DNA from: Haematococcus lacustris
Lineage: Eukaryota; Chlorophyta; Chlorophyceae; Chlamydomonadales; Haematococcaceae
Assembly (NCBI GenBank): GCA_030144725.1
Contig: JASKMD010000017.1
Location: 5,437,278 to 5,501,277 of the forward strand
DNA: 64,000 nucleotides
Direction: 5' to 3'
A model generated the notes under the pieces. That model worked only from the letters and a program-made list of their open reading frames with translations. It was not told the origin of the DNA and ran no database searches. Both the position numbers and the translations under genes were made by a program. Below are positions 11,335 through 64,000 of this stretch, piece after piece (the first letter of the stretch is position 1; each line of letters starts with the position of its first letter).

Positions 11335-12803
11335 CCTATGCCCTCACCCCCACCAGCAAGTGCAGTGTTCGGCATGTCTTCATTGACACACGGGGCCTCT
11401 ACGGCATGATGCGTGACGCCGGCATGCTGGGGGTGCTGACGGAGGAGGGGGTCACCTCCTTGGCGAAGTTCAGGAACGGTGCCCTACCTGACCCAGCGGA
11501 GCCGGGCAAGTACATTTAAGGGCCCAAAGACAGCCATGTGAGTGCTCCTTGCAGTCAGGTGAACTCGAAGCCGCGCTGGGCCAACGCCAAGTTCAGGCTG
11601 TACTGTGGCAAGAAGCGCGTGGTGGCTTCGTTTTGGGCCAAGGTAAGGGCCAGTAGCAGCTGCCACGAGCAAGGCAGCAGTCAACCAAAGTCAGCACACC
11701 TGGCCAGCTGTTGCTCTTGCTACCTCTGTTGCTGGTGCTATACCTCAGCTTACACATGTGTGCCACTGTGTCTTGCTATATGTGGCTGCAGCAAGCAGGC
11801 CAAGCAGCGGTGGCCGGACCGCATCCTGGCCCTGGCCTATGGGGCTGCTGGCTTCAGTGGCAGCGGCAGCATTGGCTGCAGGGGTGTGCTAGTTAGCCAG
11901 ATGCTGAAGGAGGCGGTGAGGCAGTTCTCAGCGGGACGAGTGGTGATGGTAGATGAGTTCCGCACCAGCCGGGTCAGCTCAGCCTACAGCCACCCCAGTG
12001 AGGCCCTCCTTGGGCAGCCGCCATAGTCCTTCAGGTGAGAGGGTTGAGGACAGGGTTGAGGGTTGGTAGTGTGGTGGGGTGAGGGTTGGTGGAGCTTGGA
12101 GGTGGTGGAGTCAAGGTGGCTGGGTAGGGTCAAGATTGGGAAGGTAAGGAAAAATCTTACAAATTTGCATTGCCCCATGTGTCCTTGCAGGTGGCTGCGG
12201 CCAGTGTACAGCGAAGCAAAGCGTTCCCAAGTCAGGGGCTTGATGTGCTCAACAAGCAACAACATCAGGTAAGCACTGGCCTGGCACTGCACATGTGCAT
12301 GTCCGCAACATATCCCACATGACATGGCACATGGGTTGACTTCATGCATCTCCCACACCCATGTGCAGATTCTATGACCGGGACGTATCAGCCGCGCTGA
12401 ACATCCGCCGCTGTGCAGTCGGCCCAGGCCCACGTCCCACGGAGCTGTGCTACTAGGAAGGCCGCCCAGCCATGCCAAAGCCAGGCAGGTCAGGCGCTCC
12501 CAACAGCGATGACTGCATGCTCCGCTACGGCTCAAATTGGAATCACTAACTTTGACGCTTTGTTGTGCACGGCCTACTCAGTGTATACTAATTCTGGATG
12601 GGTGAAAGGTAGCTGGCTGGGTTGGCTACATTGTGAACCATCTAGCATGATATTTGGCGCAGTGAGTGCAGAGTTACAGCCGTCCTACTACCAGGGGTCG
12701 GTTTCCTGTCATTTTTAAACAGTTGGGAGCGCCTGAAGGCAGGCTAGGCCAGGAGTGGGTGTACATGCGGGACAAGGCCCTGTTGCGCAAGTGGCGGCGA
12801 TAG
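11335..12803 (+). pseudogene. Fanzor (TnpB-like RNA-guided nuclease), family 1, copy A, multi-exon pseudogene
   Basis: Four exons can be followed. About 11357-11642 reads FIDTRGLYGMMRDAG, then FRNGALPDPAEPGKY, then RLYCGKKRVVASFWAK. 11796-12034 reads QAKQRWPDRILALAYGAAGF, GCRGV..SQMLKEAVRQF and VMVDEFRTSRVSSAYS, which carries the Asp-Glu of the RuvC-II/zinc-ribbon junction. 12191-12268 reads WLRPVYSEAKRSQVRGLMC. 12369-12803 begins FYDRDVSAALNI, the RuvC-III motif, and ends RDKALLRKWRR-stop. GT-AG borders join in phase. Nonsense codons lie at 11517 (TAA), at 12024 (TAG, where related copies suggest Glu) and after ELCY (TAG). A MITE splits the last exon. The RuvC-I region is missing, probably displaced by the LINE. 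The zinc-ribbon cysteines expected after TSRV are absent. Confidence 0.85.
12490..12736. mobile_element. MITE-1, 247 bp, 15-bp perfect TIRs, 7-bp target duplication
   Basis: The ends are TCAGGCGCTCCCAAC (12490-12504) and its exact reverse complement (12722-12736). AGGCAGG flanks both sides (12483-12489 and 12737-12743). Removing the element with one AGGCAGG restores the Fanzor frame KPGR-LGQEWVYMRDKALL. It has no coding capacity. A second, inverted copy is at 52921-53142. The superfamily is uncertain: a 7-bp duplication is not the usual 8 bp of hAT elements. Confidence 0.9.
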
Positions 12804-12870
12804 CCAGCTACAGCAAGACAATCAAAGAAAACAAGATGTTAAACCCCTCGCAAAGGGGATGTGTGTGAGT
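12804..12870 (+). ncRNA. candidate 3' guide-RNA/right-end block of Fanzor family 1
   Basis: Directly after the family 1 stop lies AT-rich sequence, then the hairpin CCCCTCGCAAAGGGG (12844-12858) followed by ATGTGTG. The same arrangement follows the family 1 remnants at 27192-27260 (minus strand) and, diverged (CCCCTCACAGGAGGG), at 63000-63040. In TnpB and Fanzor systems the guide RNA is encoded at or overlapping the 3' end of the ORF. Whether this block is transcribed is an inference. Confidence 0.4.
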
Positions 12871-12871
12871 A

Positions 12872-13055
12872 AGAGCTATAGAGTAGGGTAGAGCTCTTGC
12901 TAGTAGTAGACCTGGAGGCACACACACCCAAAGGCTTAGCTGAAGTGGGCATTAGGCACACTAGCAGTAGCCTTTACAATAATGAACTCGCAGCCTGTAT
13001 TTAGCTACAACTCATGCTTTATTTTGATGTTGCATGAGGGCTGTAGGGATTTAAA
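12872..13055 (+). repeat. dispersed repeat Z (copy 1), probably extended right end of Fanzor family 1
   Basis: About 180 bp starting AGCTATAGAGTAGGGTAGAG and ending TGCATGAGGGCT. It is repeated in inverted orientation at 22838-23008 with roughly 85-90 percent identity by eye. Because copy 1 directly follows the family 1 3' block, it may be part of that element. Confidence 0.7.
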
Positions 13056-13739
13056 ACTTGTAGGGGAACTTTGCGCTGTGTAACGCCTACCTCTTGCCAA
13101 CCTCACAAGTCTGAAGAGCACACACCGTTTCTTCCTTTACTGGCCATGTACAGAAGACTCATCACCTACGTAGGACTCAGAAGCGAATGATAACATACAC
13201 GACGCACATGGCATACACGCACTCATCAGTTGCGAGGGTCCATTAACTGACCTTACCCATGTATGGCATACAAGTACAGAGGCACACACAACTCAACGCA
13301 GTACAACCACATGCAGGCTAAGGAGTTGTGGGACCCACCGCAATCATGGGCGCTCAAAGCATGGTCACACTTGACAACTAAATAACCCATTGGCACGGCC
13401 CACTGCTGCCGGGCTGCCTACAAATACCAATCTTGTGGGCTTTAGCATTTGTGCCTTCTGACTTCACCCAGGCCCCAAAAATGAACCCAGATACAGACCC
13501 AGATACACTGGCTGCATACTAGGGACCAGTGGAATGCAAAGGCATAGCCATGGGTGGTGGGATGACGCTGGGCGGAAGGGGGACGGAAGGACAGGCGGCA
13601 TGCATGACGACAGGCATGCAGCTTGAGAGGGTCTGCGAGGGGTTCGGCCCCGCCCCCCGCCAGCCCCTCCCGCATCAGCTTAGGGGGCAACAAGTACCAG
13701 CACCTACCACCCACACTACCGCCCTGACGCGTGTGACAG
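13056..13739. other. intergenic, no feature recognised
   Basis: Mixed sequence with CATACACG and GGCATAC words. No convincing ORF, repeat or RNA gene was seen. 13600-13740 begins to resemble the 3' flank of Fanzor family 2. Confidence 0.5.
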
Positions 13740-14030
13740 GGCTGTAGCCCTGAGCTGGCGTAAAACTCATGCACATTAGACTGATGACAGCTTGATGTGG
13801 CCCACACTACTGTGCCCCAGCAGGCTGCTGTCGCTGCTGCTGGGCCTTGGGTGGGTTGGTGGTCTTGCGATCGCTTTGTAGCCCAGGTCAGAATACTCCT
13901 TGCCCTTGGCTGGCAACTCCAGCGGGTCAGGCCACAAGCACAACTCCAGCGGGCGCCATCTGCTCTCCCAAGTGCGCTGTATGTTTCAAGCTGCATTGCA
14001 GTCCCAGTCTACTGGTGTTGAAGCTGAGAG
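13740..14030 (-). pseudogene. Fanzor family 2, copy H, 3' fragment
   Basis: The minus strand reads WDCNAA-stop-NIQRTWESRW, then RPLELCLWPDPLELPAKG and KEYSDLGYK, which is the family 2 RuvC-III region (elsewhere WLDRDCNAALNM) and its conserved C-terminal tail. A nonsense codon interrupts RuvC-III and everything upstream is missing. The 3' side keeps part of the family 2 non-coding block with CTGATGACAGCT (13780-13791). Confidence 0.8.
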
Positions 14031-14129: not shown

Positions 14130-16561
14130 TCACTGCAAGCTGGGGGTCAAGCTGCGCAGTCTCTTAGGCTCCGGCCCCTCTGAGCTGCACTCCATGCGGC
14201 CCACCTTGGTCATGCAGCCATGCACGCCCCCCCGCCCCGCCTGCAAGAAGTGCTGACGCCAGAGCCCACGCGAAGGGCCATCCACCAGCAGCCCTGCCAG
14301 CGCATCCAGCGGCTCCTCTGCCATCCCCACAGCCCTGGGGTAGGCGGTCAGCAGCAAGGCCGGTCGGGCACCACCAGGCACCCCAGCCTCCGCTGCCCCG
14401 GCCTGCTCTGCCCTGCTGTCTCCCTCACCTGACCTCACCAGCTGCGCCCCCAGCACAGGTGAGGCCGGGTCTGGAGTGTGCACTGCAGTTGCTGTGCTGT
14501 GTGGCGGACTTGAGGCGGGTGTGTCCCAACTGCCCCGCCAGCTGCTGGGCTGGCGCCCTGCAGGGGTCAGGCCAGGTGCTGTGCAGCCAGTGGGTGCGGC
14601 TGCCTCTGCTGCTGGCCCCTGGGGCATGGTGTGGGGTGGGATGCTGGGCAGTGCGCTGTCCACTTGAAGATAGAACAGGGCCTGCTGGGCGGTGTGGATG
14701 ACGCGCACGCAGCGCAGGGCGCCGCTGCCCTGGCACTGCACCGCCCGGCTGCCGCCCAGCAACTGGCCTGCAGCCAGACATGCAAGCGGCAGGGAGGGCA
14801 GGGTATGCTGGAGCAGAGTTGGCAGGCGGCTGTTCTAAAAAAAAGAGCTAGCTGGCAAGTAGTCACAGCCTACAGCACCTCGCAATGAGACATCACCGTC
14901 GTCTTCTGTGCAGCCCGTGGCACATATAGCCGTGGCTGCACACCTGGCAGCACAGACTGACTGAGATACCATGCAAATGTGGTGGAGCGTCCATCACTAC
15001 CCAAGCCCTGGAGCCATGGCGCACTCTAGGGCTGTAGCTAGTTCACTGGTATTTGCTAGTGCAACGGGCTGGTAGCCATCTAAGCATCAAGCTGTCGGTT
15101 TTGATGAGGTGCCCAGTGGTGTGGGGTTTGCCCACAAACGTGCCATCGATGTGGGGGCTGTAGTCATTAAGGGTGCGACCGAGGATGCTACAACGTGTTT
15201 GTAGTAGCTGAGTGAGATTACCCAAAGTTCAACATGTTCCTTGTTGGACAAGTTTTGTGGGGAATGAGATACCATGTAAGACAGCCTAGTGCCACAGCAG
15301 CGTGCCAAGCAACACCAGCTCGCTTCTGGTCATAAGCCATGATTGAGACCACCCCTGGTCAGCAGCTGTGGGCACTCACATTCCACGACGGACAAGCGAC
15401 CAGTCCCATCCACTCCTGCCAGCGCCCACGAGCCACTGGCACCACCCGCCCCCCATGGGTGCCTTCGCATGGGCTGGGCTGCTGGGCTGACCGCTGTTGT
15501 GATGAGGGGCGAGCACAGGTGCTCCAGCCCAGGGGCCTGGCAGGCCAGCTGACAACCCTCCACATGCAGCTGGCCTGCCCGGTGCAGAATGCATGGGCCT
15601 GCATGGGACTGCATGGCTATGCCGGTGATCTTGCATGTAGCCCGGACGTCCAACAGGGCCTGGGTCCCTGAGCGAAGGCTGGAGTACAGGCTGGAGCCCA
15701 GCTGTGTCCGTGAGGCGGCCTGGCCAACCAGGTTCAGGCACTTGTCGATGATGAGGCCATCTGTGGGCAGTACAGGGCAGTACAGCTACGCCATGCCCTC
15801 TGCACCCTTGAGCAGCCTCCAGCCGCACAAGGCGTCCCTGCATTGCCTCGCCCCCCCAGAGCACGACACAGGCAAAACCGCCAAGAGGCTGACTGCAGAT
15901 CAAAAGGGGCTGGCAAAGGTAGAGAGGGGCCAGTGTGAGGGCGCCACGACCTGCGGACCAGGATGCAACTCTCATCCTACACCCACTCTCCTCTGTGGCC
16001 TGCCCCTGGAGCTGCCAGAGCATCATTGCTAGAGTGCTGCAGCAGGCCAAGGGCTGCAGCTGCGCTTGACCAAGGCTGCTTTTAAGGGCCTGCAGAGAGC
16101 GACTGTGGCTGGGCTGTATATGGCTGGGCCCCACCTGTTATGACATGGGCGCCAGGGCAGCAGAAGATTGTGTCTCCTGGTCTGCTGGCCTTGACCGCAC
16201 ACGTCAGGGTCCTGTAGTGGTTTGGTCTGCTCAGGGGCGCTGCAGGGCCCACCACCGACAGCCAGTTGCGGGAATCGTGCGTAAGACGCTTCAAACGCTG
16301 CGTCACAGGCAGGTGGGCGGGTGGGTAGGCGGGTGGATGAGTGGGCGAGTGGGAGGGTAGGTTGGCGTGTGGGTGGGTTGGCATGTGGGTGGGTGGGCGG
16401 GCACTCTGCACTCTGCAGCCTCTGCAGTCTAACGTTCAGTCACACACCAGGCAGGTCCGAGCGAGGTTGAATCCATCAGGCACTGGGTCTAGGGAGCTCA
16501 GCACACTCAGCAGCAGCGCATCATCCAAGTCCAGGAGTCGACACGGAGCCTCAACTGCCAT
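14130..16561 (-). CDS. F-box protein with parallel beta-helix repeats (FBXO11-like architecture)
   Basis: Four exons join in phase: 16561-16448, 16297-16135, 15760-15380 and 14767-14130, for 431 aa. Residues 8-48 form an F-box: LLDLDDALLLSVLSSLDP, then LARTCL joined across intron 1 to RLKRLTHDSRNW. Then comes a carbohydrate-binding/beta-helix-like segment (YRTLTCAVKASRPGDTIF, CCPGAHVIT, DGLIIDKCLNLVG, ITGIAMQSHAGPC, LHVEGCQL, CVRVIHTAQQALFYLQVD), typical of pectin-lyase-fold repeats in F-box proteins that present substrates to SCF ubiquitin ligases. The last 150 residues are Ala/Pro-rich and end EGPEPKRLRSL. Intron 1 holds a GGGTGGGC minisatellite; intron 3 holds a family 3 Fanzor end in the opposite orientation. 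The start could lie upstream since the frame is open there. Substrate and role are unknown. Confidence 0.75.
15080..15300 (+). repeat. Fanzor family 3 right-end block, solo copy in an intron
   Basis: From GCATCAAGCTGT to GAGTGAGATTACCCA this matches, in opposite orientation, the 3' flanks of family 3 copies at 19288-19422 and 63133-63275. The core GGGTGCGACCGAGGATGCT is best conserved. No family 3 coding sequence was recognised upstream. It lies antisense to the F-box gene inside its intron 3. Confidence 0.75.
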
Positions 16562-17060: not shown

Positions 17061-17345
17061 TATTGGGACTCCCAATATGGGAGGCGTTTCCATGGGTTGT
17101 TGCGGGCCCAGCCATTATTAAACCCGCCGGTACTCTGCAGCCTCTGCCTGACCTTGGGCAGCCGGTCATTGACCAGCTTGTAGCCCTGCTGGTACTCCTT
17201 GCACCACTGGGGCAGAGCCTCCAGGTCCTCACACTGGCACAGCTCCAGGGGGCGCTGCTTGCTCTCCCCAATGCGCTGGAAGTTGAGGCACGAGTTCCGG
17301 TCCAGCCGCCTGCCCCATGGGGGGCCCGGGGTTGTGGCACTAGGT
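17061..17345 (-). pseudogene. Fanzor family 3, copy A, C-terminal fragment
   Basis: The minus strand has an uninterrupted reading frame: LDRNSCLNFQRIGES, RPLELCQCEDLEALPQ, KEYQQGYKLVNDRLPKVRQ, ending YWESQ-stop at 17061. This is the RuvC-III neighbourhood of family 3 (LDRDTNGCLNF in copy C), but the catalytic Asp of RuvC-III is Asn and Thr-Asn-Gly is shortened. Upstream domains are absent. No family 3 3' block is found downstream. Confidence 0.75.
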
Positions 17346-18041
17346 GCAGCACTAGGGAGGGGGTTGAGTTTGCATTACACCGTTCTGTGTTCAGGTGTCA
17401 AAGAGTTTGTATGGGTTGTGAGGGGTTGAGTGTTCGGTTGTGGGGTTGATGTGTTAGAGCTGTCGTCACCACCTGCACAACAGGGCTTTGTCAGGCTAAA
17501 AAGCCCCCTCGGGTACTCCTGAATACACTGACTAATGACCACTGGTTGCATCAATGCATTTCAGCACCCTCCCTTAGCAAGCAGCTGGGACTGTATTGTA
17601 CGATATTGTCAAGGGGTAGGGGCTAGGGGGCAATAGGCGTTGGCATCAAGCTTGTAGCCACAGGTTATGCCTATCAGCAGGCCTGTATCCATGTCGTAGA
17701 TGTCAAGCAGTGGGTCAAGTGGTGGGATACCCAAACCATTGGATACATGCCACACAGGCAAGACACCAGCAACAGTGACTAGGTCCTAGGAAACAGCACT
17801 GTTGGGAGCAGCGCTTAGCATTCAGGCTTGCTTTCCCTGTCCTACCCTGTCCTGCGCATGTCTAGCCCAATTGCGTGGTGGCACCAGTAGGACATGTCTT
17901 AAGGAACTGCCTGAACTGGGCAATACAGCTCGACACGACGTTGGGCAGAGAAAGAAACAAAAGGCTGCACCCTTGCCAGCAGCGCCGCTCACACTTGTCG
18001 AGCTTCTCCCTAGCGTGCCCTTCATAAGTGGCTGATCAGTA
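17346..18041. other. intergenic, downstream of ASA6 on the minus strand
   Basis: No ORF with a protein-like pattern, no tandem repeat and no RNA gene recognised. It would include the ASA6 3' UTR; no TGTAA polyadenylation word was noticed close to the stop. Confidence 0.4.
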
Positions 18042-18759: not shown

Positions 18760-19287
18760 TTCCGTAGGAGGCTGTTGCAGTGTTGCAGCGTAGGAGGCTG
18801 TTGCAGTGTCCGTGGGAAACAATGGTTAGGAGTTTTCGGCATGGGCTCGCATGAATCCTGGAGGTCGGGATTGTCATTCGGGTTTTGAAACAGTTCGGGT
18901 GAGTCAAACAGATGAGGGATGGCATGTAAAAGCCTACAAAGGTCCAATGTAGCTGCTAAATTCAGCCCCAAGTCCACTATGTTAAACATCGTGTTGTATG
19001 GAGAATCCCATTGAGGGAACATTTTTAAAACTCAAACATGTTGTTCTATGTTAAATGAGCTATGGTCAGCTTGGATACACTCACAGTGTAGCCTAATGTT
19101 TGAAACATAGGAAGCTTCGAGTCGGCAGCTTGGGGCCACCTACTCAGTACACAGAAGACACTTCACTAAGTGAAGGCGCTGACGACTGTTCGTCACGGTC
19201 CAGTTTGGCTACCTGAGCCATGGGATAACCTAGAGCTTCAGACAAACAAAGCTCATTCAACAAGGAACAACATGATTGACTGCGGGT
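18760..19287. other. ASA6 upstream region
   Basis: Presumed promoter and 5' UTR of ASA6, including the 20-bp direct repeat at about 18762-18811. The remainder is AT-richer unique sequence. From about 19240 it begins to resemble the outer part of the family 3 3' flank (CAACAAGGAACAACATG). Confidence 0.4.
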
Positions 19288-19930
19288 CATCTCACTCAGC
19301 TACTTCAAACAGGTTGTAACATCCTCGGTCGCACCCTTGATGACTGCAAACCCCACACCGGTGGCACGTTCCGTGGGCCGACCCTCAGGACCACTGGGCA
19401 TCTCATCAAAACTAACAGGTTCTTGCTTTAAAGGCTAACAGCCGCCTCAAACTACTAGGCCCTAGATGCATTGTTGCGGGCCCAGCCATCGTCGCCCCGC
19501 CGGAACTCTGCAGCGCGGTGCCACCTCTGCCTGACCTTGGGCAGCCGGTCATTAACCCGCTTGTAGCGCTGCTGGTACTCCTTGCCAACGGTGGGCAGAG
19601 CCTACCTGTCCTTCCAGCTGCACAGCTCCAGGGGGCATTGCATGCTTTCCCCGATGCACCGGAAGTTTAGGCACCGTTGGTGTCCCAGTCTAGTCACCTG
19701 CCCCATGGGGGGCCTGGGGTCGTGGCACTGGGCCAGGTACAGCAAGGGGGGGCTGGTCCTCGGCAGGGGGAGGGGGTGGCTCCTGGGCAGGGGCAGGGTG
19801 GTGCTGAGCCGTGGGGTTGGGCGGCACCTCATGGCACCACTTCGGACCACTTAGCATGCCGCTGGCTCCAGGTTGGGCGCACAAGCCAATGGTTGACCTG
19901 GCCTGCTGGGGGTACCCAGTCCGCGGGATT
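19288..19930 (-). pseudogene. Fanzor family 3, copy B, decayed
   Basis: The minus strand reads WVPPAGQVNHWLVRPTWS (linker shared with families 2 and 3), then a Pro-rich stretch, then a decayed RuvC-III (LDWDTNGA-stop) and the C-terminal tail in broken frames. 19288-19422 is the conserved family 3 3' block, including CCTCGGTCGCACCCTTGAT. Several stops and the D-R-D to D-W-D change mark it as dead. Confidence 0.75.
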
Positions 19931-20519
19931 GTTGATTCAGCTTCAGCACAGGCACTCACTTCAGGGGCGCCTTGCCTTTCATCGCAACGACAGGACCATG
20001 CTATGGAACTGGACAAGGCTGCTGTACAGTCAGCTGACCTGACTTGGCAGCCCAGCCACGCCTCAGCCTAGAGGCCAGACCTGCTGTGTCGCATGTTGGC
20101 ACCCATCCCTTGCCGCACACGCAGGAGTTCTGCCCGGCAGTGAGGGCTGCAAAGCATGCATGGGCGACTGTCAGCATTGTGCCCAAATTGGCTATGGCTG
20201 TGAAAGCTATAACGATACTTCAGGAACACTCACCAGCGCAACACATCATCCTTGGTCCAGTCACAGCAGCAGAATGGCAGGAAGATGCACGGCCAGCACG
20301 CTGTAAGGAAGAGCCCGGCTGCAACCAGCCAGGTGCAGGCGCCTGCGGCCTTTGCTGGCTGTGGCACCACAACCTGCGATCAGGGATGTGCACGCATGCT
20401 ACAGCAGCGGGACAGGGGGTGCGGAGGTGCCGCTGGACAGCCATTAAGCTTACATGCATGCATGACACGTGCTGGTAATAAGCCATTACCATGTATCAAC
20501 GACCCTATGAACCCTACGA
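19931..20519. other. intergenic with a small shared fragment
   Basis: 19942-19985 (GCACTCACTTCAGG, GCGCCTTGCCTTTCA) recurs at about 29133-29175, and CATGCT(A/G)TGGAACTGGAC recurs at 57837. These look like scraps of a dispersed repeat. No gene recognised. Confidence 0.35.
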
Positions 20520-22066
20520 AATGTGGATACTGCGGGGTAAGAATCAGCAAGGCCCTAGCTGAGCGGCATGAGATTGTGTTTCATCCTGTCACACAGATTG
20601 GAGTGGGCATTGACCCCAGCGCCATCCCCGGTGGGACGAGGAGTCAGGCCAGCTGGTAACAGACAAGCTGGCCCAGTGGAAGCTGACCAAGAACCAGGTG
20701 CGGCAGGCCAGTGGCCTGAACAATGACCGACGTAACATCGAGGGGTGGCTAGCACTGACCAAACCCCAGTTTCAGCACCTGGCAGCAGCTCAGCCGGCAC
20801 CTCCCTGGAGGTCAACGAGAAGCACATCACAACCACCATGGCTGTCTGGAACGCGGTGTGGGAGGTGTACCTGGGCCCCAAGTGGGCACAGCAGCGGCTG
20901 AGGCTGATTGGAGCCCAAGCTAGAGCAGTTATTTGAGATGATTGGGGTTGAAGAAGGTGAGGGTGGATGGGTGGTTTTTGTGTTGGGAGGTGGTGGGATG
21001 GCATGAAGTGCTGCAATGTCAGCCACCATGGGTGCCTTGTGTGCATGACTGCAGCTGCAGGAGGAGATGGCTGAGGTGTAATGGAAGCGCCACCGTTGTG
21101 CCAAGCAGCTGCTGATGTTCTTTGACGCATGCATTGGCACCCAGGGAGGCTGGGGTGCTGACCAGTGTTTTTCCCGTTTCGCCCAGGTGCATTAATTATG
21201 GCTTATCGCATATGACATTGCCCTTATTTATGACGCGATGGGCGATAGGCAGTTTGCAGATAGCTCAAAACGAGAGCTAAAACATGACATTTCATATCGC
21301 ACACCACACATAACGCGAAAAACGAGAGCTGAAACATGACAACTCTTTATAGCGCACACTTTACATGGCACGAAAATTCCACTAGTGTTGACGCCGTGCT
21401 GCAAGCCTGCTGCAAAGTGGTGTGCAGGACCAGGGGCATAGACCAGCAGCAGGACAGGGTGGTGCTAGTGGGTGAGTTCTGCACCAGCCGGTCATCTCAG
21501 CAGTAAATGGCCCGCAGCCCTGTGAGGAAGGGCTAAACTACCACAGGGCTACCAGGCCTGCAGGCTGCAAGCCCCCAGCAAGGCAGGTGCACCACCGGCT
21601 GATGCGTCCAGCCTGGGGCCAGCAGCGTAAGCAGCCAGTGCAGGGCCTTATGTGGTGTCCGATAGTGGCCCCCAGCAACATGTCAGACCCCATGCAGCCA
21701 GGCAGGCACACAGACAGCCGCCTCAAAGCCTGAGCCTAGCACTCCCCCGCCAGGCAAGCGTAGCCAGTGCACAAAGGCTGAGCAGACAGATGAGCCCACC
21801 CAGCCCCCAAAGGTCAAAAGCAGGGGCAAAGGCAAGGCTGCCAAAGCCAAAACAACTCTGCAGGTGGGTGGACAGGGACTGCAATGCAGCATTGAACATG
21901 CAACGCATTGGGGAGATCTGGAGCTGTGCTGGTGGCCGGACCTGCCTGAGCTGCCAGCCAAGGACAGGGAGTGCCCTGACCTAGGCTACAAGCGACTGCC
22001 GGGCTGGCCACCCAATGCCCAGCAGCAGCAGCAGCCTGAATCAAAGTATTGTGTCCATTCTTTATG
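20520..22066 (+). pseudogene. Fanzor family 2, copy A, long copy spanning RuvC-I to RuvC-III
   Basis: Reads ALAERHEIVF then TQIGVGIDP (RuvC-I, catalytic Asp present) at about 20560-20620. Next, in a shifted frame, are WDEESGQLVTDKLAQWKLTK and QASGLNN, then VWNAVWEVYLGPKWAQQRL. An intron (about 20958-21057) separates EEMAEV-stop-WKRHRCAKQLLMFF. A hAT-type MITE interrupts GAD/AVLQACCK. Further on are VVLVGEFCTSR (Asp changed to Gly before the Glu), the Pro/Lys linker, and an intact RuvC-III WVDRDCNAALNMQRIGE near 21869-21920. Frameshifts and stops make it a pseudogene. The normal family 2 3' block is missing after about 22033. It is the only copy here on the plus strand. Confidence 0.85.
21163..21384. 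mobile_element. hAT-type MITE-2, 222 bp, 8-bp target duplication
   Basis: The ends are CAGTGTTTTTCCCG and CGAAAATTCCACTA (the 3' end reads TAGTGG when inverted), giving the short YAGTG terminal signature of hAT elements. Flanks are GTGCTGAC (21155-21162) and GTGTTGAC (21385-21392), 7 of 8 identical. Removal with one flank restores the Fanzor frame GAD-AVLQACCK. Inside, ACGAGAGCT(A/G)AAACATGACA occurs twice. Non-coding. Confidence 0.85.
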
Positions 22067-27191: not shown

Positions 27192-28401
27192 TACCAATGA
27201 GCACACATCCCCTTTGCGAGGGGTTTAGTATCTTGTTTTCTTTTATTGTCTTGCTGAAGCTGGCTATCCCCGCTGCCACTTGCGCCGCCACTTGCGCAAC
27301 AGGGCCTTGTCGGGCACACACACATTCCTGGCCTGGCCTGCCCGGCTCTGGCATGGCTGGGCGCCCATCCCATCTGGACAGAGCAGTGGGACGTGGTCCT
27401 GGGCCGACTGTACAGCGGCGAATGCTGAGCACGTCTGACACGTCCTGATCATAGAACCTGCAGGGGTATGGTGGGGGAGGCGAAATGAGGTCATGTGTAA
27501 TGCCATGTGGGATACGGTTAGATCATGCTCATGTTGAGGGTGAGGCCAGTGGTTACCTGATGTTGTTGGTTGTTGAGGACGCCAAAGCGCAGACGTGGGG
27601 TCGCTTTGCCTTGCTGAACATTGGCTGCAGCCACCTGCAAGGACACATCTTCAATGTTGATTTGTACAGCCTTTCCCTGACCCTACACAGCCACTTGACT
27701 CCAGCACCTACCAGCGCTGCTAACCCTTTCCTTGACCCTACCCTCAACCCTATCACCTGAAGGACTCAGGCGGCTCTGCATGGAGGGCCTCACTGGGGTT
27801 GCTCTGTGTTGAGCTGACCAGGTCAGCAGGGCCAGCCACTAGCGCTGTCAGGTTATGTCCACACGCATTCGTCCAGACGGTTCTCGCAGGGCTGCTGACC
27901 ATTCACTCTCCCCATGGCCGTCAGTGTTACATCAACATCCATCATCTCAACATTCAACATCATTGTAACATCAACATAGCACCAACCAGCAGCTGAGCAG
28001 ACAATCATTAGCTACGGATCGCACGCAACTATGGATCCAACTACCACGCGTATGTGTGATGGAAAGAGATACCCATGGCGCAGGTAAGCTGGTTGGCAGA
28101 GGCTACTCTGAGCTCTGTTGCCATGTGGCTACTGCTGTCATCTATCTACTGCTGTCATCTATGTGGCTGGTGCTCCTTTGTGTAACAACTACTACTACTG
28201 CTGAGCTGCCCGGCTGGTGCGGAACGCGGCCTTTATCAGCACTCGCCCTGCCAGGAACTGTCTCACTGCCTCCTTTAACATCTGCCTGATAGGGATACCC
28301 CTGCAGCCAATGGTGCCGCCCATGGGCCAATGATGGGGGTGGCCGCTGGTACAATCATTCAGAAATTCAAATGCACAGTTCCAGCTGCCACTGTTGCACA
28401 T
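27192..28401 (-). pseudogene. Fanzor family 1, copy B, interrupted by a retroposon
   Basis: In minus-strand order: 28401-28200 reads TIGCRG...RQMLKEAVRQF and AFRTSR (the Asp-Glu of VDEFRTS is lost). After a 379-bp insertion come SEALHAEPP and the intron, then RWLQPMFSKAKR, then FYDQDVSDVLSIRRC (RuvC-III decayed: D-R-D to D-Q-D, Ala-Ala lost), and finally PDKALLRKWRR. The 3' hairpin CCCCTCGCAAAGGGG follows at 27208-27222. Stops and substitutions show it is dead. Confidence 0.85.
27820..28198 (+). mobile_element. 379-bp retroposon (short or 5'-truncated LINE/SINE-like) with LINE-type tail
   Basis: It lies between near-identical 13-bp flanks TGTTGAGCTGACC (27807-27819) and TGCTGAGCTGCCC (28199-28211) within a Fanzor exon. 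Its last 18 nt, TGTAACAACTACTACTAC, equal the 3' end of the LINE at 11317-11334. The body shows no reverse-transcriptase coding and no clear tRNA-like A and B boxes. It is probably mobilised in trans by that LINE family. Confidence 0.75.
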
Positions 28402-42030: not shown

Positions 42031-42033
42031 AGT

Positions 42034-42495: not shown

Positions 42496-42654
42496 GATGG
42501 CAGGCTGAGCAGGGACAGGCTGGGCAGGGGCAAGCGGGGGGAGTGGGGGTTAGGGGGGTGCATCAGGGGCTTGAGGGGCGGCACGGCTGGAGGCTTAGTG
42601 GCGCTGGGGAAGCCCGAGGTGGGGTAGCCCACCAGGCACGTCAGAAATATACAC

Positions 42655-42880
42655 AACACAAACAGTGAAGCGATGACGCGGAGCTGGCTGTGCACCTCAG
42701 CCCGCAGCTGGAGGTGCTCCTGTAGCTTGCGGTTTGTTTTCTTGCAGCCGCGCATACAAAGAGGCGATCACTCGAAGCTGGCTGTGCACCCCAGCCCTCA
42801 GCTGGAAGTGTGCCATCAGCTTGCGGCGGGTTTTCTTGCACCCGCGCAGCACAGCGCCACCCGGGACCTTGAGTACCTGC
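42655..42880 (-). repeat. 95-bp coding-like tandem module (copy 1; also 47540-47765)
   Basis: Two adjacent units encode RGCKKT(N/R)RKL..H.QLRA with VHSQLRVIASL, but in different frames, so the tandem repeat arose at DNA level. A third, solo unit lies at about 61590-61700 next to Fanzor copy G. Confidence 0.75.
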
Positions 42881-43223
42881 GGCTAAGCACAATTGACATT
42901 TTGACAGGCCACTTTGACAGGCCCAGACACGATGAGGGGACACAAACAGTGCGGGGACACACAAGGCGGGGGCGGCCACTTACGTGACGTCTTTTCGTCT
43001 CACAGCGGAACGAGACGCTGCGACCGAACCAAAAGGAGCGACGGGTTAGCTCACAGTTGGCTAGGGAAACAAACCTTTCAGTTTCTTTGCTGGGCCCTTC
43101 TTTTGTTTGTTGGTGCCCTTCCGCTTCTTCGTACCCATCACGCGATGTGAGTGTCGCTCAATCGTCGCTTTGTTGATCGGCTTTGTTGATTGTCACTTTG
43201 TTGTTGAATTGAGTTAAGAAAAC

Positions 43224-46793: not shown

Positions 46794-46915
46794 AGGTCAG
46801 GTCAGGTCAGGTCAGGTCAGGTCAGGTCAGGTCAGGTCAGGTCAGGTCAGGTCAGGTCAGGTCAGGTCAGGTCAGGTCAGGTCAGGTCAGGTCAGGTCAG
46901 GTCAGGTCAGGTCAG
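46794..46915 (+). repeat. (CAGGT)n array between the two duplication copies
   Basis: About 23 pure CAGGT units starting after GATTTCAGTGAAGCTGAG. It probably marks the recombination or amplification site of the tandem duplication. Confidence 0.95.
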
Positions 46916-46918
46916 AGT

Positions 46919-47380
46919 CTATGCACCACCATCACTTGCCTGGTTGGAATAGTGCTGCTGCATGGTCACCGCCAGCTGCATGGAGTGCGCTCCGATGGTG
47001 TTGTTGTCACCTCTCAGATTGATGTTGCCCAGCTCCTGTAGCTTGGCCAGCAGCGCCTGGTTCCTGGGGCCCTCAAAGACTGGCATGAGCGTGGGGTGAC
47101 GGCGCTGGCTTTTGCGCACAAGTTGGTTGTAGACAGTCTTGAAGTTCGGGTTGGCGAAGAATTCGCAGAAGTCTTTCTGCTGCCTTAGCATGACAGGGTC
47201 CTCGCTGTCAAGGGGCAAGGGATGCCCTGTGGGTGCTGCTGGTGCAAGGGCTGCCAGACGGGCGCTGCAACGCCTTGCAGTGGGCTGCATGACTGGCTGA
47301 GGCTCTGGCTCCGAGTCAAACTGTGACTCCGGCTCAGAGTTACAATCTGACTTGGAGTCAGAATTGTAGTCCCACTCCAT
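46919..47380 (-). CDS. acidic 153-aa ORF of the duplicated block (copy 2), unknown
   Basis: Identical to 42034-42495; see that entry for the description. Confidence 0.4.
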   Translation of the reverse strand: MEWDYNSDSKSDCNSEPESQFDSEPEPQPVMQPTARRCSARLAALAPAAPTGHPLPLDSEDPVMLRQQKDFCEFFANPNFKTVYNQLVRKSQRRHPTLMPVFEGPRNQALLAKLQELGNINLRGDNNTIGAHSMQLAVTMQQHYSNQASDGGA

Positions 47381-48108
47381 GATGGCAGGCTGAGCAGGGA
47401 CAGGCTGGGCAGGGGCAAGCGGGGGGAGTGGGGGTTAGGGGGGTGCATCAGGGGCTTGAGGGGCGGCACGGCTGGAGGCTTAGTGGCGCTGGGGAAGCCC
47501 GAGGTGGGGTAGCCCACCAGGCACGTCAGAAATATACACAACACAAACAGTGAAGCGATGACGCGGAGCTGGCTGTGCACCTCAGCCCGCAGCTGGAGGT
47601 GCTCCTGTAGCTTGCGGTTTGTTTTCTTGCAGCCGCGCATACAAAGAGGCGATCACTCGAAGCTGGCTGTGCACCCCAGCCCTCAGCTGGAAGTGTGCCA
47701 TCAGCTTGCGGCGGGTTTTCTTGCACCCGCGCAGCACAGCGCCACCCGGGACCTTGAGTACCTGCGGCTAAGCACAATTGACATTTTGACAGGCCACTTT
47801 GACAGGCCCAGACACGATGAGGGGACACAAACAGTGCGGGGACACACAAGGCGGGGGCGGCCACTTACGTGACGTCTTTTCGTCTCACAGCGGAACGAGA
47901 CGCTGCGACCGAACCAAAAGGAGCGACGGGTTAGCTCACAGTTGGCTAGGGAAACAAACCTTTCAGTTTCTTTGCTGGGCCCTTCTTTTGTTTGTTGGTG
48001 CCCTTCCGCTTCTTCGTACCCATCACGCGATGTGAGTGTCGCTCAATCGTCGCTTTGTTGATCGGCTTTGTTGATTGTCACTTTGTTGTTGAATTGAGTT
48101 AAGAAAAC

Positions 48109-48306: not shown

Positions 48307-48345
48307 TGGTCAAACAATTATTTGACCTGCGTAAATGGTGCTGCG

Positions 48346-48867: not shown

Positions 48868-48903
48868 CTGGTCACCCCTTCATGGAGCCACCACGTAACT
48901 TAG

Positions 48904-49104: not shown

Positions 49105-49106
49105 GT

Positions 49107-59107: not shown

Positions 59108-62100
59108 ATGCACAGGGCTTTTAGCGGCATGAGAAGTGGCATCGCGCCCATTTCAGGTCCAGAAATCAGAGTGGGGCGAAGGGCGGGATTGTGTTGCTTT
59201 GCCGCCTCGAACACTACCAGCTCGCCTCTCGTACCGCCGAGCTTGGCGGCCTCCAACCGGTACCGAGTGAGCCTGTGGGGTGAGGTCAGCATTGCACCAA
59301 GCAGGTCAGGGTGACATGGCATGTGCTGGGAGGCACTGACTCCAGTGCATGTGCCCTCTGCAATGCAGATGCACTGAAGTTCAACGGGCCTGCTCCTGAG
59401 CTGGTCAATGGGCGGCTGGCAATGGTCGGTTGGGTCAATGCTGTAGTGGTGAGTCAAAGCTGGTACATGACCTCCCTCAACAAGTACCATGCGAAGGCAT
59501 AATACGTCCCCCTCACTAGGGATGGTATTTTACCTGTATGAGGATATGTTCCCATGCACATGGCATGGGCGCACTCCACCATGACTGACATGCACTGGTG
59601 TAAGCTGATGACGGCTCAAGAATGGGTATACTACTGTGCCGCAGGCTGCTGCTGCTGCTGGGCCATGGGTGGGCAGTCTCGCAGTCGCTTGTAGCCCAGG
59701 TCTAGGTACTTCTTGAATTTGGATGGCAGCTCAGGCAGGTCCAGCCTCCAGCACAGCTCCAGCTCTCCCCGATGCGTTGCATGTTCAATGCTGCATAGCA
59801 GTCTCTGTCTACCCACCTGCAGGGTTGTTTTGGCTTTGGCAGCCTTGCCTTTGCCCCTGCATTTGACCTTTGGGGCTGGGTGGGCTCAGCTGTCTGCTTA
59901 GCCTTTGTGCACTGGCTACGCTTGGCTGGCAGGAGAGTGCTATTCTTAGGCTTTGACGCTGCTTGCTGCCTGGCTGCATGGGGGCTGTGGCATGATGCTG
60001 GGGCCCACTACCGGGCACCACATCAGGCCCTGCACTGGCTGCTTACGCTGCTGGCCCCAGGCTGGACGCAGCAGCCGGTGGTGCACCTGCCTTGCTGGGG
60101 GCTTGCAGCCTGGAGGCCTAGTAGCCATGTGGTAGTTTAGCCCTTCCTCCCAGGGCTGCTGGCCATTTACTGCTGAGATGACCCGGCTGTTGCAGAACTC
60201 ATCCACTAGCACCATCCTGTGCTGCTGCTGGTCTATGCTCCTGGTCCAGCACACCACTTTGCAGCAGGCTTGCAGCACCGCGTCAGCACCCGAGCCTCCC
60301 TGGGTGCCAATGCCAGCTTTGTCAAAGAACACCATCATTTGCTTTACACAACAGTGGCACTCCCATAACACCTCAGCCATCTCCACCTGCAGCTGCAGCC
60401 ATGCATGCAAGGCACACAGGGTGGCTGGCATGGTGGCACCAAGTTAAGCATGGCACAGTCACAATACAGTGCCACTCTCAAGACACAAGCCACTCACCCA
60501 CACCAAGACAAACCTCGGCATCTTGAGCGCTGCTATTGCTTGACGGTGCTCTTCCGTTGTGACATATGTAACTTTCAAGCAACTCAAGGTTTCCACAAGC
60601 CATTTTTACGGCTCATTCATACGGCTCATTCATGGGGTTTTGGCTCTGTTTGGTCCGTGGGACACCCTTGCCAACATGCACAACTGGTACAAGAATTAAA
60701 CAGCACCTTGGCCCTCAACCTTGAGCCTTCATTGCAGTCGAACACACTAATTGTGGACCACTACAAAACGGTATTTTATCTATGTGGTGTTTCCATCGCA
60801 TGGCATGCTCATGGCCTATACATGGCATACACATGGTCACGGTCGCCTACCACCTACAGCATTGCCTGACCCCTGTGACAGGGCTATGACGTAGAGTTGG
60901 CATGACAAAACCTGAAGTAATGTAAGCTGATGACAGCTCAAGAGGGGGGGCACACACTACTGTGCCGCACCAGGCTGGGTCTTGGGTGGCTTCTCTTGCA
61001 GCCGCTTGTACCCCAGGCCAGGGTACTCCTTGCCCTTGGCTGGCAGCTTCCCCTGCTCTGGCCACCAGCACAGCTCCAGTGGGCGCCACCTGCTCTCCCC
61101 AATGCGCTGCATGTTCAGTACCGCATTGCAGTCCCTGTCCAGCCACCTGCCTGCTTGTGGTGCTGGCTTTGCCTTGGCAGCCTTGCCCTGGGCCTTGTTG
61201 GGCTCAGCTGCCGGCTCAGCCTTGGTGCGCTTGCTGCGCTTGGCTGCCGGGGGAGTGCTGGGCCCAGGCTCTGAGGCTGCTGGCTGTGAGGCTTCCTGGC
61301 TGCTGCGTGGGGCCTGTGGGGGCTTGCGGGGGCCACCACAGGGCACCACATCATGCCCCGCACCGGCTGGTCATGCTGCTGGCTCCAGGCTGGGCGCACT
61401 AGGCAGTGTTCCACCTGCCCTGCTGGGGGCTTCCAGTCTGCAGGCCTGGTAGCCCTGCGCTTGTTCAGCTGCCTCTCACAGGGCTGCTGGCCATTCACTG
61501 CTGAGCTGACCGGGGTGGTGTGGTGCTCATCCACAAGCACCACCCGGGGTGGGGTAGCCCATTAGGCATGTCAGGAAGGTTCTGAGCACATACAAAGAGG
61601 CGATCACTCGAAGCTGGCTGTGCACCCCAGCCCTCAACTGGAAGTGTGCCATCAGCTTGCGGCTGGTTTTCTTGCACCCGCGCAGCACAGCGCCACCCGG
61701 GACTTTGATGACCTGCGGCCAAGCACAATCTTCACTGTGACAGGCCACTTTGACAGGCGAAGACACAATGCGGGGACACAAACAGTGCGGGGGCATACAA
61801 GGCGGGGGCGGGTGCGCACCTGTCGTCGCTGGGTCTTCCATTCACCCCTTCGCTCCTCGCGTTGTTTGCCTGGAGGGGTGCTAGGACCTGCGCTGGCATG
61901 AACAGTAGCGATGTGAGCAGCGCGGAGCTCACCGGACTGCACAGTTGCAGCGGACCACACCACGACTACGACGAACCCTGTTTTCGCGGGCTTTCGATCG
62001 GATGCGGCTCTGGCTCCGCGCTACTGGGCCGCTTCCTCGGAGGCATTGCGCCACTAGGCTCATATCTGCTAACACTTGCTCACACCGAGTTATTCCCAGG

Positions 62101-62849
62101 AGGCGATGTCACTCACTCTCGCACCTCCAAAGGGCACTTCCAATGGGCACTTCCAAAGGATCGAAACAAGAATCAAACAGTATGGAGTAATGAGGATGGT
62201 CAAATATTGGCCTGTTGGATGGAAGTATTGATTGTAAACCATTGCACAAGCATGAGGAACTCAACATGTAAGAAGCGTGTTGAGGGGACAGCTGTCGTGT
62301 TCTGTGACCTCTTGTTGAGCTGACCTGGAACATATTGTGACCTTGCGCAGCATGAGGTCACCACGAGCCAAACAGTGCTGCAGCAGGCGCAGGAGCTGGA
62401 TTGGGTGACACTGGCAGTACTAGCGATGTGGGTGTATGCCACCATGGTACCCATCTGCAAAGGCGTGCGGCACGATGAAGCCTTTGGTGAGCGCAACCAG
62501 TCATCAGCGAGGCATGATAGGCTGGAAGCTAGGGGCTGGATGAGTGGGGGTTAGGTTCGGTGCAAGCTTCAGGGAGGCCAGGGTCAGGGTGGGAGGTTGG
62601 CTAGGCAGTCTCTTACCCATGGAATAAGGCACGCTCTGGTGTGAAGGGATGTTTTTTATCGACGGACACGGCTTTCAGTTGGCCTAGTGCACACAATGGA
62701 GCTGTAGGCTCATCTCTGAAGGTTTGCCCCTATGATGCGCCACAGGCTTCTTCACGCCCAGTCTTGAGAGGAACCACGGGCGAGCGGCGATGCTAGGCAT
62801 TGTGGGGCTTGCCGCTCTTGAGGCGCAAGTCGGACAACCCTTCTTTTAG
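59108..62849 (+). CDS. ELIP-like (early light-induced, LHC-superfamily) chloroplast protein, four exons
   Basis: Exons 59108-59266, 59305-59448, 62351-62486 and 62746-62849 join in phase to 180 aa. The N-terminus MHRAFSGMRSGIAPISGP..., rich in Ser/Arg/Ala, fits a transit peptide. Helix I is FNGPAPELVNGRLAMVGW (LHC motif E..NGR.AM.G), followed by HEVTTSQTVLQQ. Helix II is WVTLAVLAMWVYATMVPICK. Helix III is LERNHGRAAMLGIVGLAALE (LHC motif again, His for Asn). Length and order match ELIPs, which bind pigments in thylakoids under light stress. Intron 2 (59449-62350, 2.9 kb) carries two Fanzor family 2 copies and repeat Y. A third Fanzor scrap lies 27 bp after the stop. Confidence 0.8.
59545..60435 (-). 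pseudogene. Fanzor family 2, copy F
   Basis: The minus strand has an intron acceptor, then VEMAEVLWECHCCVKQMMVF, DKAGIGTQGGSGADAVLQAC, MVLVDEFCNSRVISAVNG, QPVQGLMWCPVVG in one frame (60431-59946). Shifted frames then carry the Lys/Pro linker, RuvC-III WVDRDCYAALNMQRIGES (Asn to Tyr) and the tail YLDLGYKRL. RuvC-I is missing (truncated at the intron). A partial 3' block with AAGCTGATGACGGCT is kept at 59600-59615. Antisense in ELIP intron 2. Confidence 0.8.
60436..60700. other. ELIP intron sequence between two Fanzor copies
   Basis: Unique intronic sequence with a tandem (T)ACGGCTCATTCA doublet near 60608-60632. No gene. Confidence 0.4.
60701..60955 (-). ncRNA. candidate omega/guide RNA and right end of Fanzor family 2 (copy G)
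   Basis: Third full copy of the conserved 3' block. It starts at the shared terminus CAGCACCTTGG and keeps the AGCTGATGACAGCT hairpin (60925-60938), here with a 5-bp stem. Confidence 0.5.
60701..61547 (-). pseudogene. Fanzor family 2, copy G, 5'-truncated
   Basis: The minus strand reads VLVDEHHTTPVSSAVNGQQP, the linker RATRPADWKPPAGQVEHCL, RGMMWCPVV. Then, after a one-base shift in a CCCCC/GGGGG run (about 61335), it reads the AKRSKRTKAEP insert, RuvC-III WLDRDCNAVLNMQRIGES and the tail. RuvC-II Glu and RuvC-III Asp are kept; RuvC-I is missing. The 5' break at about 61547 abuts a fragment of the duplicated-block module. Antisense in ELIP intron 2. Confidence 0.85.
61548..61760 (-). repeat. 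solo fragment of the duplicated-block coding-like module
   Basis: The minus strand encodes LRGCKKTSRKLMAHFQLRAG and VHSQLRVIASLYV, matching 42655-42880. Its break adjoins the 5' end of Fanzor copy G, whose sequence stops at a GGGGTGGGGTAGCCCA word also present at 42618. Confidence 0.75.
62039..62165 (+). repeat. dispersed repeat Y (copy 2)
   Basis: Matches 37808-37940 with about 85 percent identity by eye; here with two CCAAAGGGCACTT-like units. Located in ELIP intron 2. Confidence 0.8.
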
Positions 62850-62875
62850 ACTCCTCTGTAGTTGTTTCTTTGTCC

Positions 62876-63060
62876 CAAAAGCCGGGTAGGCCAAGTCAGG
62901 AGTGAGTGTGTATATGGCTGGCGATGCCCCGTTGCGCTAAGAGCCGCGCCGGTGGCAGGGATAGCCAGTTGCAGCTAGTCAACCTCTACATTATATACAT
63001 GACCCCTCACAGGAGGGATGGGTGTGAGCAAGAGCTGTAGCCTGTAGTATAGGAGCCGCT
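62876..63060 (+). pseudogene. Fanzor family 1, copy C, 3' terminal scrap
   Basis: The decayed end of the family 1 ORF (KPGRPSQE-stop, then a diverged DKALLRKWRR region) is followed by the family 1 3' block CCCCTCACAGGAGGGATGGG and GTGAGCAAGAGCT. It lies 27 bp downstream of the ELIP stop, on the same strand, so it may supply part of the ELIP 3' UTR. Confidence 0.7.
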
Positions 63061-63119
63061 GGTGCAGAGCCCCTGCTGCAAGTACCTTCTGCTCTGTAAG
63101 AGGATGTCAATGAGATGTT

Positions 63120-64000
63120 TGACGGTGGGTAATCCTACTCAGCTACTCCAAACAAGTTGAAGCAGCCTCGGTCGCGCCCTTGATGACTACCAACCCCACA
63201 CCGGTGGCACTTTCGTTCCAGCCAACTGGAGACCACTGGGCACCTCACCAAAACTAACAGCTTGATGCTTTGTAAAGCTAGCAGTTCGCGTAAACTACTA
63301 GGTCCCATGCATTGGTGCGGGCCCGGCCACCAATGCCCCGCGGTACTCTGCAGCCCGGTGCAACCTCTGCCTGACCTTGGGCAGCCGGTCATTGACCCGC
63401 TTGGAGCGCTGCTGGTACTCCTTGCCAACGGGGGGCAGAGCCTCCCTGTCCTTCCAGCGGCACAGCTCCAGGGGTCGCTGCATGCTCTCCCCGATGCGCT
63501 AGAAGTTGAGGCATCCGTTGGTGTCCCGGTCTAGCCACCTGCCCCATGGAGGGGCCTGGGGTCGTGGCACTGGTCCAGGCGCAGCAAGGGTGGCTGGTCC
63601 TCGGCAGGGAAGGGGGTGGCTCTTAGGCTGGAGGAGGGGGTGGGGGGTCCTCGGCAGGGGGAGGGGGGTCCTGGGCAGGGGCAGGGGGGCCCTGGGCAGG
63701 GGGGTGCTGAGCTGGGGGAGGGGGAGGGGGGTTGGGCGGCACCTGATGGCACCACTGCAGGCCCCGCACATAGCATGCCGCAGGCTCCAGGCTGGGCGCA
63801 CCAGCCGCTCGATCACCTGGCCTGCTGGGGGTACCCAGTTTGCGCGCCCCGCACATACTTAGCATGCCGCCTGCCCCTGCCACTGGTATTGCTGCCCACT
63901 GCCACTGGCACCTGCAGACACGGGAAAGCACAGCACACGCACGGCAGGACTTGATGCACGGAGTCGCAATGTCGCGTGGTGCACACTGCGCCGCGTCGTC
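63120..64000 (-). pseudogene. Fanzor family 3, copy C, cut by the window edge
   Basis: In minus-strand order from the edge: QVIERLVRPAWSLRHAMC, RGLQWCHQVPPN, a long Pro-rich linker, WLDRDTNGCLNF then TAG in place of Gln, RIGESMQRPLELCRWKD, KEYQQRSKRVNDRLPKVRQ and a tail ending MHGT-stop. RuvC-III Asp is kept. Frame changes occur in the linker. The conserved family 3 3' block follows at 63133-63275 (CCTCGGTCGCGCCCTTGAT core). RuvC-I and RuvC-II would lie beyond 64000. Confidence 0.8.
63133..63275 (-). ncRNA. candidate omega/guide RNA block of Fanzor family 3 (copy C)
   Basis: About 140 bp conserved with 19288-19422 and, inverted, 15080-15226. The best-kept word is GATGACTACCAACCCCACAC with CCTCGGTCGCGCCCTTGAT. 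It has no protein reading frame shared by all copies. The role as guide RNA is an inference from its position 3' of the ORF. Confidence 0.4.

What the first reader, a model, noticed from the sequence alone, without database searches (positions are those of the whole stretch)
11335..64000. A dense population of eukaryotic Fanzor (TnpB-like) nucleases in three families
At least 15 remnants carry the RuvC-III word D-R-D-x-N/S-A-A-L-N or neighbouring family-specific sequence, and two (20520, 39788) also carry RuvC-I GIDP. Family 1: DRDVSAALNI with KALLRKWRR end. Family 2: DRDCNAALNM with GYKRL tail. Family 3: DRDTNGCLNF with NDRLPKVRQ tail. All copies are broken, so activity would need an intact relative elsewhere in the genome. 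Fanzors are known in green algae; the three-family co-occurrence and their distinct 3' ends are what seem new.
Basis: partly seen in the sequence, partly recalled or inferred. Interest (0 to 1): 0.9.

Follow-up and report, generated by a model that had tools for sequence, protein, structure and literature searches.

The report
Zinc-ribbon-less Fanzor elements in Haematococcus
This stretch of a green alga's chromosome is littered with broken copies of mobile genes related to the RNA-guided DNA-cutting enzyme Fanzor; thousands of copy ends lie in the genome, the source genes show signs of being kept intact by selection, and they lack a zinc-binding part that known relatives carry.

Summary
The window is chromosome 17 of Haematococcus lacustris and carries about 15 Fanzor pieces: three families, each one clade in a tree (support 99-100), plus a fourth lineage. 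The window copies are broken; full-length gene models exist elsewhere (P0022, P0126, P0238). Membership rests on the published Fanzor fingerprint: DPG in 169 of 177 proteins, and the shifted glutamate word in 125 of 133 (0 when shuffled). The Cys4 zinc ribbon of the 2013 Fanzor motif is absent: no CxxC in 125 of 125. Family 2 is a ~3.6-kb, intron-bearing element whose 3' end occurs 2,970 times (up to 3 mismatches; control 0). Copies are 5'-truncated and often sit after TGCTG with short target duplications. Variants shared by at least 4 copies are mostly synonymous (ratio 0.14; singletons 0.60), so source genes were under purifying selection. Not shown: RNA guidance (covariation no better than shuffles) and the mobilising enzyme (LINE-like or Helitron-like). 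Several Fanzor families in one green alga were reported for Chlamydomonas in 2013, so that part is not new.

The parts
11826..12489 (+). Family 1 Fanzor copy, RuvC-II to RuvC-III (VVMVDEFRTSRVSSAYS ... FYDRDVSAALNI), frames broken; by eye its homology may begin near 11356, just after the 3' tail of a LINE-like element
   Evidence: tblastn; sequence
13703..14011 (-). Family 2-like 3' piece (RuvC-III and tail), decayed
15067..15258 (+). Family 3 3' tail only
   Evidence: self-match to 19246-19443 and 63115-63270
17090..17361 (-). Family 3 C-terminal piece
19246..19930 (-). Family 3 C-terminal piece with 3' tail
20489..22054 (+). Family 2-like copy, RuvC-I (GVGIDPS) to RuvC-III, broken
27331..28319 (-). 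Family 1 copy, RuvC-II to RuvC-III, broken
31602..32095 (-). Fourth-lineage Fanzor copy (VVTVDKSRTSRVGSAVN ... GRDCNAALNLQ), abutting the family 2 copy at 32089
32089..32966 (-). Family 2 copy, 5'-truncated, with exact 3' end; 92% to the L041 element; no duplication recognised
36372..37159 (-). Family 2 copy, 5'-truncated, exact 3' end; weak duplication TGCTG GTTAAAG / TGCTG GTTGAAG (below the score threshold)
37808..37927 (-). 5' end of a family 2 element, beside a run of 13-bp monomers (37894-37942)
39803..42973 (-). Near full-length but decayed family 2-type copy with exon 2 to exon 4 and RuvC-I GLGIDPG; the RuvC-III word is missing
46798..47858 (-). Second copy of part of 39803-42973 made by the tandem duplication
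59588..60461 (-). Family 2 subfamily copy, RuvC-II to RuvC-III, broken
60701..62160 (-). Family 2 copy with both ends and an internal deletion (exon 2 joined to exon 4); flanked by TTTGATTCTTGT / TTTAATTCTTGT
63115..63843 (-). Family 3 copy (DRDTNGCLNF; NDRLPKVRQ tail)

Best explanation
The pieces are dead copies of mobile elements that encode Fanzor1-type nucleases, in a genome where such elements are very abundant. The family 2 element has tandem 13-bp monomers and a TATA-like box at its 5' end, a gene of at least four exons for a protein of about 880 residues with the RuvC triad D-E-D, and a fixed 3' end (...GGTGCTG). Pfam recognises no transposase in its protein, so it is taken to be mobilised in trans. 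Shown for part of the copies: they are anchored at the 3' end, lie after TGCTG, stop at varied points towards the 5' end, and are flanked by duplications of about 12-17 bp if TGCTG is counted. Supported: the source genes evolved under purifying selection. Inferred from homology only: the protein is an RNA-guided nuclease, its guide RNA comes from the element's 3' end, and cutting helps the element spread. Inferred: the insertion chemistry is LINE-like (target-primed) rather than Helitron-like. No family seen has the Cys4 zinc ribbon of known Fanzors, so the nuclease must work, if it does, with a remodelled TNB domain.
For: Fingerprint of Fanzors as defined in PMC10711439 (section 23 read, section 10 by passage): RuvC-I word DPG in 169 of 177 proteins where DP was not demanded; shifted glutamate word [D/H]-E-[H/F]-R-x3-V in 125 of 133, 0 in residue-shuffled versions. 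Profile of 23 proteins of three families against PDB chains: top hit Guillardia theta Fanzor1, E 0.4; a four-sequence profile: Parasitella Fanzor1, E 0.14, ranked second after a repeat protein with no passing stretch; the aligned parts are the right motifs. Families 1-3 align over TDGV to RuvC-III at 34-35% identity. Exact 3' end in copies with unrelated flanks; 1,324 exact and 2,970 with up to 3 mismatches genome-wide, control 0. Duplications: score 8 or more in 10 of 42 copies against 0.27% with permuted flanks; GCTG plus 8 or more exact bases in 13 of 47 against 0.44%; 8 of 15 copies with both ends against 0.64%. Selection: median dN/dS 0.34 over 945 pairs; nonsynonymous/synonymous ratio 0.139 for variants shared by at least 4 copies, 0.604 for singletons. 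No transposase domain in P0022 by Pfam.
Against: Sequence links to solved Fanzors are weak (searches gave no Fanzor). PF07282 found nothing in the genome and was under its cut-off for the window ORF. No CxxC lies between RuvC-II and RuvC-III in 125 of 125 proteins in which the E word was found; 8 of 133 lacked that word. The loose form of the fingerprint test (126 of 133) is uninformative, since 68% of shuffled sequences pass it. The 133 were selected from 329 held proteins by a pattern that already demanded TDGV, DP[GSD] and DRD. The 3'-end RNA fold is little better than shuffles (z -1.48) and covariation is not above shuffled controls. Many copies show no duplication. The copies used for the selection test were mostly picked by similarity to one window ORF, which favours low dN.
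Confidence: 0.78

Rival explanations
1. The elements are moved by a LINE's target-primed reverse transcription, like a very long SINE, from an unspliced RNA (the version of the best explanation that I lean to).
For: Variable short duplications, truncation down to 27 bp (L034), extra bases at some 5' junctions, a fixed 3' end equal to the bases at the target (TGCTG), and 5' monomers with a TATA-like box.
Against: None of 17 deletion junctions removes an intron precisely; of ten re-examined none allows GT-AG and two allow GC-AG; no poly(A) end; the one LINE 3' tail in the window does not share the terminus (by eye).
Confidence: 0.45
2. The elements are non-autonomous Helitron2-like transposons that move by one-ended rolling-circle transfer, as proposed for CRe-1, 2 and 3 of Chlamydomonas.
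For: Precedent with the same 5' truncation, 3' over-abundance and short duplications (PMC3627910 section 8). Introns 1-3 are present in 11, 2 and 22 spanning HSPs of L031-L050 and the window and no precise loss was seen, which suits DNA-level copying. A small 3' hairpin is present (4 pairs). Helitron Rep domains exist in the genome (18 matches).
Against: No terminal inverted repeat of 7 bp or more between the ends of the one element tested. Of 15 copies with both ends, 8 carry duplications (two of them probably one insertion), unlike complete CRe copies. The target is TGCTG, not T-rich. Among the first 100 exact termini listed, none lies near the Rep matches on C1, C2 and C22; the other Rep matches could not be checked.
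Confidence: 0.3
3. The proteins no longer cut DNA and are kept for another job, for example binding DNA or RNA.
For: The zinc ribbon is absent.
Against: Catalytic positions in the last exon are kept: E in 43 of 44, the two D of DRD in 41 and 40 of 44 copies, though many copies are dead; the RuvC-I D lies in another exon and was seen as DPG in 169 of 177 proteins.
Confidence: 0.15
4. The family is not Fanzor but another RNase H-fold nuclease.
For: Weak profile scores.
Against: The DPG plus shifted-E fingerprint is reported in under 1% of TnpB-family proteins and is the published mark of Fanzors (PMC10711439 section 23); the best single-stretch PDB relatives are Fanzor1.
Confidence: 0.05

Closest known systems
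CRe-1, CRe-2, CRe-3 Fanzor1 elements of Chlamydomonas reinhardtii (Bao and Jurka 2013, PMC3627910)
   Same: Several Fanzor1 families in one green alga, introns in the gene, strong 5' truncation, intact 3' ends, internal deletions, short duplications after a fixed short target word
   Different: Target word TGCTG rather than TTTT; duplications also at about half of copies with both ends; no terminal inverted repeat found; no Cys4 ribbon; 2,970 3' ends against 150, 70 and 35 loci named there. Their protein and DNA sequences were not compared here.
GtFz1 and PpFz1, solved Fanzor1 nucleases (PDB 9cer, 9cf0; PMC11423790, passages read)
   Same: TDGV, DPG (GtFz1), DEFRTS (PpFz1) and the RuvC-III word in the same order
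   Different: Both show CxxC-type zinc ligands in the alignments; Haematococcus proteins have S and V or Y there, and families 2 and 3 have a long proline- or lysine-rich linker before RuvC-III
Abundant Fanzor element of Auxenochlorella (PMC12633428, passages read)
   Same: A Fanzor-coding element is the most abundant repeat of a green alga
   Different: Described there only as uncharacterised; no sequence comparison made

Membership tests
Fanzor (fingerprint of PMC10711439) | DPG at RuvC-I | tested here: met
   169 of 177 proteins with a RuvC-I word after TDGV, DP not demanded
Fanzor (fingerprint of PMC10711439) | RuvC-II glutamate six residues before the first zinc position | tested here: met
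   [D/H]-E-[H/F]-R-x3-V in 125 of 133; 0 in shuffled versions
Fanzor (motif of PMC3627910) | C4 zinc finger between RuvC-II and RuvC-III | tested here: not met
   No CxxC between E and DRD in 125 of 125; 0 of 133 have E-x6-CxxC. Families 2 and 3 keep two single cysteines (C707, C752 in P0022). PMC10711439 says that many, not all, Fanzors have the finger. So it is filed as a zinc-ribbon-less variant, not as a member by the full 2013 motif
Fanzor | Sequence relation to solved Fanzors | tested here: inconclusive
   Well ranked, but E 0.4 and 0.14; no Fanzor
Fanzor | Fold (WED, REC, RuvC, TNB) | not testable with these tools
Fanzor | Guide RNA from the element's 3' end | tested here: inconclusive
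   A consensus fold exists but z -1.48 and covariation within shuffles; no Rfam match at gathering score
Helitron2 (PMC3627910 section 9) | Asymmetric terminal inverted repeats | tested here: not met
   None of 7 bp or more between the ends of the L041 element; one element tested
Helitron2 | No duplication at complete insertions | tested here: not met
   8 of 15 copies with both ends have one
LINE-mobilised non-autonomous retroelement | Variable short duplications with 5' truncation and fixed 3' end | tested here: met
   duplications in a part of the copies
LINE-mobilised non-autonomous retroelement | RNA intermediate (spliced copies) | tested here: not met
   No precise intron loss among 17 junctions; none of ten is GT-AG
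LINE-mobilised non-autonomous retroelement | 3' tail shared with an autonomous LINE | not tested

The most novel reading that the evidence does not exclude
Haematococcus carries a large radiation of Fanzor nucleases that cut under RNA guidance without a zinc ribbon, and whose elements insert by target-primed copying at TGCTG, so that the nuclease's target-adjacent word and the insertion word are one and the same.
Probability: 0.2. Interest if true: 0.8.

Novelty: new variant of a known kind. Interest (0 to 1): 0.5.

Why it matters
Fanzors are RNA-guided nucleases of eukaryotes. Families with thousands of copies, full-length gene models and a signature of selection, but without the zinc ribbon, would give many natural variants of such a nuclease and a way to ask what the ribbon is for. 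The insertion word and duplications make it possible to test how a Fanzor element spreads, a question that the first biochemical paper leaves open (PMC10432273, discussion passages read).

Tried and rejected
Spliced-mRNA retroposition: not supported, since no intron is lost precisely and no junction is GT-AG. Guide RNA by covariation: not supported. Rfam: no match at gathering score; two sub-threshold matches judged chance. Viral relatives: family 1 gave none in viral contigs. Plasmids: no match. Helitron end match: not supported as far as it could be checked. Pfam hits PF05419 and PF16786 judged chance. One search's tree missed families 1 and 3 through too narrow a pattern; one search replaced it. 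One search timed out; one search crashed while printing its last rows, after its statistics were printed. The loose fingerprint counts are not used: 68% of shuffled sequences pass that. An earlier estimate of duplications at complete copies was replaced by the count.
Full report
Where it lies. The window's contig is 12,486,648 bases long, the length of chromosome 17 in the Haematococcus pluvialis (lacustris) assembly (PMC10400597, passages read), and the listed relatives of the window's proteins (the best 120, 120 and 98 of three searches) are gene models of H. lacustris.

The observation. Six strict RuvC-III words and one GIDPG occur in the six frames; none occurred in 60 simulations of 11335-64000. 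With full-length relatives as queries, about 15 pieces were mapped. They belong to family 1 (11826-12489, 27331-28319), family 2 and subfamilies (starting at 13703, 20489, 32089, 36372, 37808, 39803 with its duplicate at 46798, 59588, 60701), family 3 (15067 tail, 17090, 19246, 63115), and a fourth lineage (31602). The most complete, 39803-42973, spans exons 2-4 but has lost the RuvC-III word. At 32089 one Fanzor element abuts another.

What the proteins are. Full-length-looking gene models exist for each of the three families: P0022 (884 aa), P0126 (816 aa), P0238 (789 aa). Of 329 proteins held, 177 show a RuvC-I word after TDGV, and it is DPG in 169. A pattern demanding TDGV, DP[GSD] and DRD selected 133; of these 125 carry the word [D/H]-E-[H/F]-R-x3-V, which puts the glutamate six residues before the first zinc position, and shuffled versions never do. 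DPG with the shifted glutamate is the published fingerprint of Fanzors (PMC10711439, section 23 read and section 10 by passage). A looser count (126 of 133) is uninformative because 68% of shuffled sequences pass it. Between E and DRD no CxxC occurs in 125 of 125. Knuckle 1 mostly reads SSAV (family 2), SSSV (family 3) or SSAY/SSAD (family 1); knuckle 2 CPVV, CHxV or SSTS/CSTS. A 23-protein profile of three families ranked Guillardia Fanzor1 first (E 0.4), and a four-sequence profile ranked Parasitella Fanzor1 second (E 0.14), among 177,635 distinct PDB sequences, with the correct motifs aligned; four other PDB searches gave no Fanzor. Pfam's TNB profile was over its cut-off in 3 of 10 proteins, which hold more than one Fanzor piece each, and under it or absent elsewhere; it found nothing genome-wide. 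A tree of 41 proteins (12 per family and 5 unassigned, drawn from 133) gives one clade for each family with support 99-100, and warns that the long branches between families may be misplaced.

The element. Four loci hold long family 2 copies; the L041 element is 3,678 bp with exons at about 133-344 (probably split again), 455-1167, 1330-2499 and 2651-3423 (edges read by eye). The 5' end is a variable run of 13-bp monomers followed by a TATA-like box. The 3' end is the same in copies with unrelated flanks. Its 25-mer occurs 1,324 times exactly and 2,970 times with up to three mismatches; the reversed control gave 0. Family 1 is also abundant: 150 scored of 2,779 first-look candidates (a lower bound).

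How copies are made. 64 HSPs reach the 3' end, with starts spread over most of the length (overlapping loci are counted twice there). Duplications: score 7 or more in 15 of 42 copies against 1.4% with permuted flanks, 8 or more in 10 of 42 against 0.27%; GCTG followed by at least 8 matching bases in 13 of 47 against 0.44%; and in 8 of 15 copies with both ends against 0.64%, two of the 8 being probably one insertion. Of three window copies with an exact 3' end, 60701 has a clear duplication, 36372 a weak one, and 32089 none. So 3'-anchored insertion at TGCTG is shown for a part of the copies; the enzyme is not. I lean to target-primed copying (0.45) over Helitron-type transfer (0.3).

Selection. 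In 44 distinct copies of the last exon, median pairwise dN/dS is 0.34 over 945 pairs, and 12 of 44 have stops. Pairs at dS 0.4-0.8 gave a higher 0.66 (96 pairs), probably decayed copies. Variants shared by at least four copies are 43 synonymous and 19 nonsynonymous (site-corrected ratio 0.139); singletons are 73 and 140 (0.604). This is what source genes under constraint and dead copies would give. Most of the copies came in by similarity to one window ORF, so the singleton figure is probably too low.

Guide RNA. The 3' region folds into a consensus, but the single-sequence z-score is -1.48 and covariation is within shuffled controls (58, 55, 49, 211 and 29 of 500 shuffles reach the five observed values). 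A guide RNA is therefore inferred from homology only.

Novelty. Five Fanzor1 families, three described closely, are in print for C. reinhardtii (PMC3627910), and a Fanzor element is the most abundant repeat of Auxenochlorella (PMC12633428, passages). Searches for Fanzor with Chlamydomonas, with Haematococcus, with green algae, and with LINE terms listed no account of these elements; the library lacks most subscription papers, and a 2023 survey of Fanzors in Science Advances (recalled) was not seen. Whether other green-algal Fanzors also lack the ribbon was not tested. New as far as I could see are the absent zinc ribbon shared by the families here, the copy number, the selection signature, and duplications at TGCTG in copies with both ends.

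Noticed in passing
window 65-11335 (+): A LINE-like element with a reverse transcriptase domain (RVT_1, E 1.2e-24) in a 2,988-aa ORF; long CCACCC hexamer arrays lie at 1-714 and 2855-6775 and 500 N at 715-1214; its 3' tail runs up to a family 1 Fanzor copy.
   Followed up: partly
window 41909-46793 and 46794-52854: Tandem duplication, 99.9% identical, with breakpoints at an AGGTC array in intron 2 of a Fanzor copy; the second copy has a 1,174-bp insertion at 49092-50265 that also ends in TGCTG.
   Followed up: partly
H. lacustris gene models: Many listed proteins with Fanzor pieces also carry Pfam domains of host genes (for example kinase, histone and ADP-ribosylation-factor families), so Fanzor copies may distort the gene catalogue.
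   Followed up: no
   Followed up: partly
L034 8795-8821: A 27-bp copy of only the family 2 3' terminus flanked by a 14-bp near-perfect duplication, an extreme truncation.
   Followed up: partly
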